From an uncultured Lachnospiraceae bacterium (GTDB taxonomy: Bacteria; Bacillota; Clostridia; Lachnospirales; Lachnospiraceae), in assembly GCA_947652735.1 (NCBI GenBank), contig CANTEG010000018.1:1-47918 (forward strand): a stretch of DNA of 47,918 nt, written 5' to 3'. Each line of letters begins with the position of its first letter. The stretch's first letter is position 1. Under the pieces are notes generated by a model. The model did no database searches and had not been told where the DNA came from. It saw only the letters and a list, made by a program, of their open reading frames with translations. This document shows, piece by piece, positions 22,230 through 37,185 of this stretch. The position numbers and the translations under genes are program-made.

Positions 22230-22742
22230 TTATGCAGAATGTGCTTTTATATGATTTTCTAATATAGCATGCACACGTTCCACTTCATCAAGAATAAATG
22301 AATCATCACGATGTAGAATTTTTAAGTCTGCTTTAACATTTACCATATCCTGTTTTAAATCTGACACATCCTGCTTAACGTACACCATATCTTGTTTCAG
22401 CTCTGACACATCCTGCTTCAGACCTGACACATCCTGTTTCAAACCTGACACGTCCTGTTTCAGACCTGACACATCCTGTTTCAAACCTGACACGTCCTGT
22501 TTCAGACCTGACACATCCTGCTTAACTTCTATCATGTCCTGTTTCAGACCTGACACATCCTGCTTAACTTCTATCATGTCCTGTTTCAGACCTGACACAT
22601 CCTGCTTAACTTCTATCATGTCCTGTTTCAAACCTGACACATCCTGTTTAACTTCTACTATATCTTTTTTCACACCTGTCATATCTTGTTCGAGACAGGT
22701 TACTTTTTCAAGTAATAAATCAAGTTTTTTGCTGTCTGTCAT
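22230..22742 (-). CDS. Heptad-repeat coiled-coil protein
   Basis: ATG 22742 follows AAGGCGGTG; the longer frame from 22799 lacks a site. The 170-residue protein opens MTDSKKLDLLLEKV, then carries about 14 consecutive heptads of the types DVSGLKQ, DMIEVKQ and DMVYVKQ, and ends in a distinct 35-residue helix (DDSFILDEVERVHAILENHIKAH). It must be a long parallel coiled coil. It resembles the short coiled-coil protein at 9.0 kb. No partner is visible. The heptads are encoded by nearly identical 21-bp units, so length variation is expected. Function unknown. Confidence 0.75.
   Translation of the reverse strand: MTDSKKLDLLLEKVTCLEQDMTGVKKDIVEVKQDVSGLKQDMIEVKQDVSGLKQDMIEVKQDVSGLKQDMIEVKQDVSGLKQDVSGLKQDVSGLKQDVSGLKQDVSGLKQDVSELKQDMVYVKQDVSDLKQDMVNVKADLKILHRDDSFILDEVERVHAILENHIKAHSA
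22335..22665. repeat. 21-bp / 42-bp coding tandem repeat
   Basis: Units of TCCTGTTTCAGACCTGACAC and close variants recur every 21 bases on the plus strand, with a 42-bp higher-order unit containing TGCTTAACTTCTATCATG in the 22510-22665 part. All units keep the reading frame of the coiled-coil gene. Confidence 0.9.
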
Positions 22743-22943
22743 AAGTATCACCGCCTTTATTGTGGATGCTGATGGTTGGTGCATATGAGTATAGCACAAC
22801 TAAAATACAAAGTCCATTGAATTATCAGTATAATTTGCATCCCAATAGCAATAAATACATTTTCCAATCTTAAATGTATGGTTATAATTTAGATATCCGT
22901 ACAATGCACGAGAACATTCAGGGCAGAAATGTGCCATAAGGTG

Positions 22944-34109: not shown

Positions 34110-35228
34110 TTATAAATTCATATAGCTATTTAAAATATTAGGACGGTCTTGATCCGCATCTGCTTTAAAAAATACCATTTCATTATCAGCAGCAACTGTC
34201 TTGTATGCATAATCCAAGTCTACATTGCCTTTAAAAAAAGGTTCGAAATAATTAGGAACAATCATATCCGAATAGTCTTTTCGCCTTATAAATCCCGCTT
34301 TTAGTAATTGTTCATCTTCTAAACCTGCTTCAACAAAATCAACATATTCATACATATTGGTTTTCAATACAGCCAATAGTTGATTTATGACACCCGAAAG
34401 TGCTTTAATATCTCCTATAAAGTCAACAATTCGCAGACATTTACCGTATTGCGTTCCACAAACACGAGTAAACATTACAGCTGTTATTTCACCATTGTCT
34501 ATAATTTTATAGCATTTATACCTATATACAGGGTGCATGTAAAAACGGTTAATATAATAATACTTCGACTTATATGGACTCATTTTTTCAAACAGTTTTT
34601 CATTGTCGGATATTTTTTCAAACTGTTCACAACTGCATTCCTGAAGTGTAAAACAATCTTTAAACTTAGAATAATCTATATTATGTAATTCCTCAAACCC
34701 TGATGATAAGACCGCATCTTGGGCGAGGTTAGGCAAAAAATACTGCACAATCTTACCTGTTTTAAAATTCCAATGTTTATATATGCTAAGAGCAATTTCA
34801 CTTATGCCTAATATAGCTATTGTTTCAATTGGCAAAGTATCTTTCAAATAATAATAAAGTGATACGCCCAGTCCTTTACGTTTAATATCATCCCGGGATT
34901 GCCAAATACATGGCCACACCATCACCCTTTTAATATTCTTGTCATAATGGCTTGTTGGAACAAATCCAAGAATAGAATGAATTTCTTTGCTGATTCTATT
35001 TTTTGCTATAACAAAGTTATATCTATGGTTATCTCTATCCAGATGCTGAAAATCTAATACAGTTTTTGAAAGTACAAAAATGTGATCGTCTCTCCAATAC
35101 CGTTTTAAAAAATCAACTAATTCCGTATATTCATCTTCTTTACAAAACCTTATTTCATAATCTTCAAATATCGACTTCATATAGTCTTTTCCATTTAATT
35201 CTGGCAATATATCTTTCATAATACCCAC
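34110..35228 (-). CDS. GNAT-like acyltransferase
   Basis: 372 residues. The first 180 fit a GNAT fold: YEIRFCKEDEYTELVDFLKRYW, then FVIAKNRISKEIHSILGFVP, then a motif-A-like RKGLGVSLYYYLKD with the acetyl-CoA pyrophosphate loop and SIYKHWNFKTG. The second half is probably a diverged second GNAT domain (MHPVYRYKCYKIIDNGEITAVMFTRV). The deacetylase stop at 35216 lies within its first codons, so the genes overlap by 13 bases; ATG 35219 is an alternative start. Likely acylates amino groups on a glycan exposed by the deacetylase. Substrate is inference from the pairing. Confidence 0.7.
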   Translation of the reverse strand: MGIMKDILPELNGKDYMKSIFEDYEIRFCKEDEYTELVDFLKRYWRDDHIFVLSKTVLDFQHLDRDNHRYNFVIAKNRISKEIHSILGFVPTSHYDKNIKRVMVWPCIWQSRDDIKRKGLGVSLYYYLKDTLPIETIAILGISEIALSIYKHWNFKTGKIVQYFLPNLAQDAVLSSGFEELHNIDYSKFKDCFTLQECSCEQFEKISDNEKLFEKMSPYKSKYYYINRFYMHPVYRYKCYKIIDNGEITAVMFTRVCGTQYGKCLRIVDFIGDIKALSGVINQLLAVLKTNMYEYVDFVEAGLEDEQLLKAGFIRRKDYSDMIVPNYFEPFFKGNVDLDYAYKTVAADNEMVFFKADADQDRPNILNSYMNL

Positions 35229-36178
35229 TCCTTTTTATAATTTTCACTTTTAGGCGGAAAGTCATTACAATCTAATCGTGGTAATTTTAAGTGCTCATGT
35301 TTTGTCAAATCAGCCACTGCCACCTCTGTTGTCAGTCCAATACAAGCTCCCTGTTCAGCAATATACTGCACTACATCTTCATTAAAACTTCCATATGGAT
35401 AATTCATAACCCAACGTTTATTATCAATAAATTCATCCATTACTTTCAATGCATTTGATATATCTGTTTTCATTTGTCCTATAGACAAATTCCCCAGCCA
35501 ATAATGGTCATATCCATGAATACCAATAAACATTCCGTGTTGTTTCAATACTTTTATTTGTTCTCTCGTCATATATAATTCGTGTGCTAACTGTTCCTCC
35601 GTAACACCAACATATTTTTGAAAAAGACTACTACAAATGCAGTTTCTCAACTTCTCAGGTAGCACATCCTGCAATATTCTTTTTAAAAAAATAATTTCTT
35701 TGGTATCAAACCTGCTTGTTTCCGCATAAATTGAGAACAAGTCTTCATTTAAAGGATAATCAAATTCAACTCCACGATAATAATTTAATTGTTCAAAAAC
35801 ATCTATGAGCAAGTCATTTACATTTGCACTTGCCAAAATATAATGAATTTTATTAACATCAAGCAATTGTCGTGTTGTAAAAGTTTTAGCAGGAACAAAG
35901 AATGAGCCTTGTACATTTGCCTCCTCTAGAATTGGAAATGCATATGTATAATTGTCAATATAGCCATCATCAAAGGTAAGCAACACAGCATCAGGAGGAA
36001 GCTTATTTTTTCTTTCAGCAGCATCAATTACTTCCTCCATTGTAACTACTGTGAATTTTTCCTTTAAAAAATAAATCTGCTTTCTAAACAATTCCACATC
36101 TAGTCCTTTAATTTTAGGATATCTGCTATGTTTTAAATCTCTCGTGTAGTGATACATAACTATACTTAACTTCGACAT
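35216..36178 (-). CDS. Polysaccharide deacetylase (NodB homology, CE4)
   Basis: 320 residues. NodB motifs are visible: TFDDGY near residue 67 (catalytic and metal Asp), the metal-binding IHGYDH (HxxxH) near residue 220, RWVMNYPYGSFNED near residue 255, and a late GLTTE. A long insert lies between motif 1 and motif 2. No signal peptide is seen, unusual for a peptidoglycan deacetylase; it may act on intracellular sugar precursors. ATG has no canonical AGGAGG (TGGAGTGAT lies upstream). It is the first gene after the putative invertible promoter, with 22 bases from its start codon to the left GTATAC core. Confidence 0.85.
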   Translation of the reverse strand: MSKLSIVMYHYTRDLKHSRYPKIKGLDVELFRKQIYFLKEKFTVVTMEEVIDAAERKNKLPPDAVLLTFDDGYIDNYTYAFPILEEANVQGSFFVPAKTFTTRQLLDVNKIHYILASANVNDLLIDVFEQLNYYRGVEFDYPLNEDLFSIYAETSRFDTKEIIFLKRILQDVLPEKLRNCICSSLFQKYVGVTEEQLAHELYMTREQIKVLKQHGMFIGIHGYDHYWLGNLSIGQMKTDISNALKVMDEFIDNKRWVMNYPYGSFNEDVVQYIAEQGACIGLTTEVAVADLTKHEHLKLPRLDCNDFPPKSENYKKEWVL

Positions 36179-36190
36179 TTAAATCACTCC

Positions 36191-36340
36191 AATCAAAAAT
36201 GTATACCTTTTCGATTGCAGTTTTTTTACAAAAAAATATAAATATTGAAACATTTACATTGCAAATTTAACGCTATATAGTATAATAATTATGTATTTGA
36301 TGAAATTTGTTGAAATCCGAAAAGGTATACTCTTTCGGAT
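36191..36340. promoter_or_regulatory. Putative invertible promoter segment between two recombinase sites
   Basis: Left site 36191-36216 and right site 36315-36340 are each 26-bp near-palindromes (22 of 26 positions) centred on GTATAC. They are inverted relative to each other: GTATACCTTTTCG (36201-36213) and CGAAAAGGTATAC (36318-36330). Inside, TTTACA (36253-36258), 17 bases, TATAGT (36276-36281) point right, away from the deacetylase operon; a weaker TTGCAA/TATATT pair points left. The serine recombinase gene ends 20 bases beyond the right site. This is the layout of a phase-variable promoter, drawn here in what may be the OFF orientation. Confidence 0.65.
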
Positions 36341-36359
36341 AAATAACATTACTTGGAAA

Positions 36360-36965
36360 TTAGGTTTTTTCAAATTTCCTTGCTTTATCATAAAATGTAC
36401 TTTCCGCTAAATGACAAGCTTTCGCGGCTTGTTTCAAGGTCAGTTTTCTTTCTCGCCACTGCTGTTGTACCCCATAAAAATTATCTGGAAGCGGTACTGG
36501 TGGTCTTCCAAATTTCACTCCCCTTGCTTTCGCTGCAACAATGCCTTCTGCTTGTCTCTGTCTGATATTGATACGTTCATTTTCTGCCACATAACTTAAA
36601 AGTGCAAGCACTATATCGCTTATAAATGTCCCCATCAAATTCTTTTCTTTTCTCGTGTCCAGAATTGGCATGTCAATCACCACAATATCTGCACCTTTTT
36701 CTTTTGTAATAACACGCCACTGTTCGTTTAAATCCATATAATTTCTGCCAAGTCTGTCAATAGACTTAACGAACAAAACAGAGTTATTATCCAATTTCCG
36801 CAATAACTTTTTATACTGTGGACGTTCAAAATCTTTTCCTGATTGTTTATCCACATAAATCTGTCTTTCCGCAACACCAATTTCCTTTAACGCAATCATC
36901 TGTCTAACCTCATTTTGATCCCGACTGCTGCACCTCACATATCCATATATTTTTTTCCTATCCAT
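36360..36965 (-). CDS. Serine recombinase (resolvase/invertase family)
   Basis: I start at ATG 36965 after GGAGGG; the longer frame from 36992 adds nine residues. 201 residues in the classical small-recombinase order: catalytic domain with YGYVRCSS (nucleophile Ser 13), KSIDRLGRNY with active-site arginines near residue 70, the long E helix (DIVLALLSYVAENERINIRQRQAEGI), and a C-terminal HTH (LTLKQAAKACHLAESTFYDKA). Such proteins invert or resolve DNA at short dyad sites. Its 3-prime end abuts a pair of inverted GTATAC-centred sites, so local inversion is its likely job. No transposase is nearby. Confidence 0.92.
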   Translation of the reverse strand: MDRKKIYGYVRCSSRDQNEVRQMIALKEIGVAERQIYVDKQSGKDFERPQYKKLLRKLDNNSVLFVKSIDRLGRNYMDLNEQWRVITKEKGADIVVIDMPILDTRKEKNLMGTFISDIVLALLSYVAENERINIRQRQAEGIVAAKARGVKFGRPPVPLPDNFYGVQQQWRERKLTLKQAAKACHLAESTFYDKARKFEKT

Positions 36966-37185
36966 TTTTCCCTCCATAAAACTTCCCATCATAAATAGTA
37001 TGGTAATTTAATACCTATAGCAATTATAATAAGCACATACTTATTATGTCTCATTATTAATAGAGTATATCAATTTTTTATTAATGTTGACGGTTTCATA
37101 AACGATTTATTCAATGATAATGTTCACAAAAAACAATACAGCAGTTAAGTCCATAAGAAATAATGAGAAATGGAGGCTTGATTAT

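What the first reader, a model, noticed from the sequence alone, without database searches (positions are those of the whole stretch)
36191..36965. Recombinase-controlled invertible promoter in front of a glycan-modification operon
Two 26-bp near-palindromes centred on GTATAC lie in inverted orientation 124 bases apart, between the start of a polysaccharide deacetylase / GNAT operon and the 3-prime end of a serine recombinase gene. A good promoter (TTTACA, 17, TATAGT) lies between them and points away from the operon; inversion would point it at the deacetylase 22 bases beyond the site. Sequence shows sites, promoter-like boxes and recombinase; phase variation of surface glycan deacetylation/acylation is the inference. 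The core dinucleotide AT is self-complementary, so orientation control would need another feature.
Basis: partly seen in the sequence, partly recalled or inferred. Interest (0 to 1): 0.85.

Follow-up and report, generated by a model that had tools for sequence, protein, structure and literature searches.

The report
Recombinase-flipped promoter before glycan-modification genes
A gut bacterium probably switches a two-gene sugar-modification operon on and off by flipping a 124-bp promoter segment with a neighbouring recombinase, and across its relatives the length of such segments keeps close to whole turns of the DNA double helix.

Summary
Two 26-bp dyads (36191-36216, 36315-36340; centres 124 bp apart) lie between an intact small serine recombinase gene and a deacetylase operon; the best promoter between them points away from the operon. 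The window's dyads are too symmetric to show inverted orientation themselves (19 vs 18 of 26). Relatives settle it: 109 of 189 scanned loci carry such a pair behind the recombinase (5' side 0 of 123), all 93 asymmetric-core pairs are inverted, and three pairs of related loci have the segment flipped between conserved flanks, one involving the window's self-complementary AT core. Site spacing is quantised: 95 of 106 lie within 2 bp of a multiple of 10.5 bp; the rule recurs in a second sample and after thinning. I infer synapsis through a short in-phase loop. Relatives of the operon sit in NeuB/NeuC loci or behind flagellin, so it probably modifies a nonulosonic acid. Inversion in this strain was not observed. 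About 120-bp inversions at csrA-tldR loci, the same kind of cassette, are in print (PMC13418256); ten open-access searches showed no account of the spacing rule.

The parts
36360..36992 (-). small serine recombinase (210 aa), putative invertase of the cassette
   Evidence: Pfam Resolvase PF00239 1.6e-27; nearest solved relative 2r0q (Tn552 bin3/Sin) 1.7e-23, then gamma-delta, Tn3, a DNA-invertase; one other weak match in its genome, 35% over 112 residues
36315..36340 (.). crossover site 1 (recombinase side), 26-bp dyad, core GTATAC, centred 32 bp after the recombinase stop
   Evidence: 11/13 dyad symmetry; position as in relatives
36191..36216 (.). crossover site 2 (operon side), 26-bp dyad, core GTATAC; its outer arm adjoins the ribosome-binding site
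   Evidence: 11/13 dyad symmetry; exact 13-mer GTATACCTTTTCG found only at these two sites in the genome
36204..36327 (.). putative invertible segment, 124 bp from core centre to core centre (12 helical turns less 2 bp)
   Evidence: family spacing rule
36259..36286 (+). promoter TTGCAA-16-TATAAT, now pointing at the recombinase 3' end (OFF for the operon)
   Evidence: score 17.8, -10 end 41 bp from site centre; family mode 39-41 bp
35216..36178 (-). polysaccharide deacetylase (320 aa), first gene of the controlled operon
   Evidence: Pfam Polysacc_deac_1 6.1e-20; best NCBIfam model PgaB, 72.5 bits, below its cut-off 321.9; PDB PgaB/BpsB relatives
   Evidence: 30% identical homologue beside the deacetylase in another genome; pair found elsewhere
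36179..36190 (-). ribosome-binding site region GGAGTGATTTAA before the deacetylase ATG
   Evidence: sequence read

Best explanation
A self-contained phase-variation cassette. The serine recombinase binds as a dimer to each 26-bp dyad. Two dimers meet by bending the ~124-bp segment into one short loop of about a whole number of helical turns, cut at the central dinucleotide, exchange and religate, and so invert the segment. In the assembled orientation the best promoter fires at the recombinase's 3' end and the operon is off or low. After inversion it would start about 60 nt before the deacetylase ATG (my arithmetic) and the operon is on. The deacetylase and its partner then remodel an N-acyl sugar, most likely a nonulosonic (legionaminic-like) acid on flagella or the surface. 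Shown: the parts, the family architecture, inverted sites, the spacing rule, flipped related loci. Inferred: inversion in this strain, dimer binding, cleavage and looping, the target sugar.
For: Pair behind the recombinase in 109 of 189 relatives, 0 of 123 on the 5' side. Central dinucleotide identical between the two sites in 109 of 109, as a 2-bp overlap requires. Orientation-blind search: second site inverted in 93 of 93 asymmetric-core loci. Flipped segments between 80-88% identical downstream flanks in L055/L051, L035/L032, L106/L105; in L055/L051 outer half-sites stay and inner halves swap. Promoter -10 at 37-43 bp from a site centre in 50 of 79 loci whose best promoter points at the recombinase and 8 of 27 pointing at the gene. 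Spacing period 10.50 bp (bootstrap 10.35-10.65), 95 of 106 within 2 bp of whole turns; second sample R=0.53 at 10.5. A co-directional reading frame of 60 aa or more begins within 100 bp of site 2 in 41 of 55 loci. Deacetylase or its partner in NeuB/NeuC loci or behind flagellin. Printed ~120-bp inversions behind 'hin' at csrA-tldR loci.
Against: No reads or second assembly of this species could be examined, so only one orientation is known. The window's own sites do not show inverted orientation and its ON/OFF call is undecided. Promoter-like hits pointing at the gene (30 at score 16 or more) are hardly above shuffled segments (25.3), unlike those pointing at the recombinase (88), so most single ON calls are weak. 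The nearest recombinase relative (L016) and eight others of 22 at >=70% identity have no pair by the strict rule. Eighty of 189 relatives fail it, though 11 of these have a looser partner. Both same-genus genomes with a deacetylase orthologue lack dyads of 11/13 upstream of it. Viral-contig relatives mostly lack the pair: 4 of 73 with matching cores.
Confidence: 0.87

Rival explanations
1. The dyads are a resolution (res-like) site of a Sin/Tn552-type resolvase left by a plasmid or transposon: one crossover site and one accessory site, acting by deletion or dimer resolution, with no promoter switch.
For: By sequence the nearest solved proteins are resolvases: Sin, gamma-delta, Tn3. Two of three plasmid relatives examined have a related dyad about 150 bp upstream of the gene, one of them with an HU gene close by. 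Window sites fit direct and inverted alignment almost equally.
Against: In relatives the pair lies 3', not 5' (0 of 123 core-matching pairs on the 5' side); 93 of 93 asymmetric cores are inverted; three pairs of related loci are flipped. I recognised no transposon gene by eye in the window's reading-frame lists; no search for one was made.
Confidence: 0.05
2. The locus is a locked relic: once an invertible promoter, now fixed OFF (or leaky) because site symmetry or recombinase expression has decayed.
For: Single known orientation; site 2's outer arm is less symmetric than site 1 across the family; the nearest relative lacks the pair; a same-genus orthologue keeps only a lone dyad-like GTATAC stretch, seen by eye, and its genome gave no recombinase match.
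Against: Recombinase reading frame open with catalytic motifs aligned to Sin; both window sites keep 11/13 symmetry and an identical core; spacing and promoter position fit the family.
Confidence: 0.15
3. The dyads are operators for a DNA-binding repressor or transcription terminators, and the nearby recombinase gene is incidental.
For: Dyad sites next to a stop codon and a ribosome-binding site could act as hairpins or operators (inference).
Against: Co-occurrence with this recombinase in 109 of 189 loci with varied downstream genes, identical central dinucleotides and flipped segments with the change-over inside the dyads.
Confidence: 0.03

Closest known systems
hin-associated ~120-bp inversions at csrA-tldR loci of Oscillibacter/Flavonifractor (PMC13418256; passages read)
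   Same: Recombinase gene immediately upstream, short inversion just behind it, promoter inside. My seven 115-bp loci L031, L032, L033, L035, L040, L057, L070 look like it: sigma-28-like boxes by regular expression in six of seven (not L033; also in three other loci), flagellin motif in six of seven (not L057, short flank), TnpB-like by Pfam in L031, L033, L040, L057, CsrA by Pfam in L033 and L040.
   Different: Window has a sigma-A type promoter, an AT core and a deacetylase operon instead of tldR/csrA/fliC; the passages read mention no helical spacing and no wider family.
Hin/Gin/Cin DNA invertases (Salmonella fljB switch; recalled, plus abstracts in listings)
   Same: Serine recombinase, 26-bp dyad sites in inverted orientation, promoter inversion.
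   Different: About 124 bp instead of about 1 kb (recalled) between sites; protein nearer to Sin and gamma-delta than to the solved DNA-invertase 4m6f; a Fis-type enhancer was not looked for; AT core here.
Mpi and other gut invertons (PMC11892184; passages and section 6 read)
   Same: Short invertible promoters controlling surface genes in gut bacteria.
   Different: The NCBIfam Mpi model scores 41.8 bits against a cut-off of 272. Mpi acts at many sites in trans (recalled); here the exact 13-mer occurs only at this pair.
Sin / Tn552 resolvases and plasmid relatives
   Same: Best sequence match among solved structures; two plasmid relatives share a GTNNAC-centred dyad.
   Different: In those two the dyad lies upstream of the gene; here two inverted sites lie downstream and flank a promoter.

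Membership tests
Recombinase-dependent invertible promoter (inverton) | Two crossover sites in inverted orientation flanking a promoter | tested here: met
   Met for the family: 93 of 93 asymmetric-core loci inverted, promoter at a preferred place. In the window alone orientation is undecidable (19 vs 18 of 26).
Recombinase-dependent invertible promoter (inverton) | Both orientations occur | tested here: inconclusive
   Met in relatives: three flipped pairs; 14 ON, 64 OFF, 28 undecided of 106 segments. Not testable for the window strain.
Hin/Gin DNA invertase subclass | Serine recombinase catalytic domain with C-terminal HTH | tested here: met
   PF00239 over residues 15-159; R20, S22 and SIDRLGRN align with 2r0q; C-terminus aligned to gamma-delta up to residue 202, no separate HTH Pfam hit.
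Hin/Gin DNA invertase subclass | Fis-bound recombinational enhancer | not tested
   No enhancer search was made.
Hin/Gin DNA invertase subclass | Closest to Hin/Gin rather than resolvases | tested here: not met
   Sin 2r0q 86.4 bits, gamma-delta 66.7, 'DNA-invertase' 4m6f 50.5; that 4m6f is of the Gin/Hin kind is recalled.
Mpi family (NCBIfam NF009949) | Score over the curated cut-off | tested here: not met
   41.8 bits against 272.
Sin-type resolvase with res site | Crossover and accessory sites upstream, acting on directly repeated copies | tested here: not met
   0 of 123 core-matching pairs on the 5' side; inverted cores 93 of 93.
csrA-tldR hin inverton (PMC13418256) | Recombinase immediately upstream of a ~120-bp invertible promoter | tested here: met
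   Geometry met in the window and in homologous 115-bp loci with TnpB-like genes; invertibility in the window itself not shown.
csrA-tldR hin inverton (PMC13418256) | FliA promoter with tldR, csrA and fliC downstream | tested here: not met
   Window has sigma-A type boxes, was not among the sigma-28-like matches and has a deacetylase operon.

The most novel reading that the evidence does not exclude
In this family of compact serine-recombinase switches the rule that selects inversion is mechanical. The two sites are held about a whole number of helical turns apart (8 to 20 turns, period 10.50 bp), so that two dimers can meet only in one geometry across a short loop, with no enhancer and, in AT-core members such as the window, with no directional information in the core. 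Segment length evolves in ~10.5-bp jumps under selection.
Probability: 0.45. Interest if true: 0.82.

Novelty: new variant of a known kind. Interest (0 to 1): 0.64.

Why it matters
It turns one suspected switch into a member of a widespread cassette that different lineages have attached to glycan genes, surface proteins, a flagellin, and methylase and helicase genes. The spacing rule is a physical constraint read from comparative genomics, and it makes directly testable how a serine recombinase with a self-complementary core chooses inversion over deletion. For the host biology, a surface or flagellar sialic-acid-like sugar would be modified in only part of the population, which could bear on immune and phage recognition of gut commensals.

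Full report
What is in the window. A 210-aa serine recombinase gene (36360-36992, minus) is followed by a 26-bp dyad (36315-36340) centred 32 bp after its stop, and a second dyad (36191-36216), 124 bp from the first centre to centre, that ends 12 bases before the ATG of a polysaccharide deacetylase (35216-36178, minus). The deacetylase's reading frame overlaps that of a 372-aa partner gene (34110-35228, minus). Only five 26-bp dyads with 11 of 13 complementary pairs occur in the window; two are these. The pair scores 30.0 against a shuffle maximum of 26.0. The exact 13-mer GTATACCTTTTCG occurs only at these two places in the 2.77-Mb genome. The best promoter between them, TTGCAA-16-TATAAT, points at the recombinase; a slightly weaker one (16.6 against 17.8) points at the operon.

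What the window cannot show. The sites are near-palindromes with central dinucleotide AT, so they match inverted in 19 and direct in 18 of 26 positions. Orientation therefore had to come from relatives.

Relatives. Of 197 loci, 8 had too little 3' flank; I scanned 189: 89 from the first two searches (the window included) and 100 from the third, a few of them near-duplicates of the first set. A core-agnostic search for an inverted pair behind the stop codon was positive in 61 of 89 and 62 of 100 against 40 dinucleotide shuffles each. Of these 123, 109 have GTNNAC-like cores in both sites, and the central dinucleotide is identical between the two sites in all 109 although one search did not require it. 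The same search on the 5' side gave 7 of 123 positives and 0 of 123 with matching cores. Cores are GT 67, AT 16, AG 14, CT 6, AC 6. An orientation-blind search with the core masked found the second site inverted in 93 of 93 asymmetric-core loci. Negatives: 80 of 189; 15 of these have one good dyad and 11 of the 15 a looser partner. Among the 22 relatives at 70% identity or more, 13 have the strict pair and 9 do not, the nearest (L016) among the latter.

Inversion between relatives. Pairwise alignment of 106 segments found three pairs that score 50 or more flipped and not as they lie: L055/L051 (123 against 18), L035/L032 (90 against 16), L106/L105 (70 against 18); the maximum of 3000 shuffled comparisons was 34. 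Seventeen pairs, several of them overlapping, score 50 or more in the same orientation. The flanks are conserved without flipping: 88% over 1487 bp, 88% over 971 and 84% over 274 bp, and 80% over 1083 bp downstream. In L055/L051 the outer half-sites stay with the flanks and the inner halves swap, which places the exchange in the core. L105 has an AT core and a recombinase 78% identical to the window's; its partner L106 has a GT core. Both control a membrane acyltransferase (PF01757).

Promoter. The best promoter's -10 box ends 37-43 bp from the nearer site centre in 50 of 79 loci where it points at the recombinase and 8 of 27 where it points at the gene. The window's lies at 41 bp. With a position filter 64 segments are OFF, 14 ON and 28 undecided, the window among the undecided. 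Hits of score 16 or more number 88 towards the recombinase and 30 towards the gene, against 25.3 per pass in shuffled segments, so single ON calls are mostly weak evidence.

What the cassettes control. In 41 of 55 loci a co-directional reading frame of 60 aa or more begins within 100 bp of the second site; frames were picked mechanically. Pfam for 40 downstream proteins chosen from these loci: surface proteins (Big_2, BspA LRR, VWA, fn3, one flagellin), glycan genes (GT2, Wzy_C, PMT_2, hexapeptide), methylases and helicases (Eco57I, C5 methylase, SNF2, HA), zinc-ribbon and SPFH proteins, TnpB-like proteins and others; 9 of 40 had no match.

The operon here. The deacetylase matches PgaB-type deacetylases below NCBIfam cut-offs. 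Two same-genus genomes have deacetylase orthologues (61%, 64%), both in clusters with NeuB- and NeuC-like genes. In the first the neighbours are NeuB, Epimerase_2, DegT aminotransferase, CBS-nucleotidyltransferase and cytidylyltransferase by Pfam, and a homologue of the partner follows (30% identical); the second cluster was named by eye. The partner occurs in 7 of 200 family genomes, the window's own included. I looked at the surroundings of four loci in three of the others: NeuB-NeuC-deacetylase-partner, deacetylase-partner, flagellin-deacetylase-partner, and one partner with no deacetylase among the frames listed. The window's genome has two NeuB genes on another contig. The pathway name legionaminic is recalled; the nonulosonic-acid link is inferred from these neighbourhoods.

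What is known. Ten searches of an open-access library were made. [quoted passage not shown] My 115-bp loci with TnpB-like genes, CsrA and flagellin look like that system. [quoted passage not shown] its supplements could not be read, so some of these cassettes may be in it. Neither the passages read nor the search listings show a helical spacing rule for inverton sites. Most subscription papers are not in that library.

Verdict. The strain itself remains untested, and the novelty lies in the family-wide spacing rule and in the AT-core question rather than in the existence of an invertible promoter.

Noticed in passing
L033:5765-9573; also L031, L040, L057, L070, L032, L035: 115-bp cassettes with sigma-28-like boxes (motif recalled; six of these seven by regular expression, not L033) beside TnpB-like genes (Pfam in L031, L033, L040, L057; by eye in L070; not shown in L032, L035), CsrA and flagellin; the TnpB-like proteins seem to lack RuvC residues by eye. 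Looks like the csrA-tldR system of PMC13418256.
   Followed up: partly
L305:1050-1075 and L306:1037-1062: Two of three plasmid relatives examined (47% identical) carry a GTNNAC-centred dyad about 150 bp upstream of the recombinase, one with an HU gene close by: a resolvase-like layout from which the 3' inverted pair may have evolved.
   Followed up: partly
L290:8900-8935: A lone dyad-like GTATAC stretch (by eye, below my 11/13 threshold) just upstream of the deacetylase orthologue in a same-genus genome without a recombinase match: possible relic of a lost cassette.
   Followed up: no
106 segments of the family: Promoter-to-site distances outside the main 37-43 bp peak also cluster, at about 30, 50 and 60 bp (period 10, R 0.53, n=48), unexplained.
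   Followed up: no
L055:5796-8966, L066, L077, L080, L084, L089: Several cassettes precede methylase or helicase/nuclease-like genes, suggesting phase-variable restriction or defence.
   Followed up: no
window 22230-22799, minus: Reading frame made of tandem VSGLKQD/MIEVKQD-like repeats, a coiled-coil-like protein by eye.
   Followed up: no
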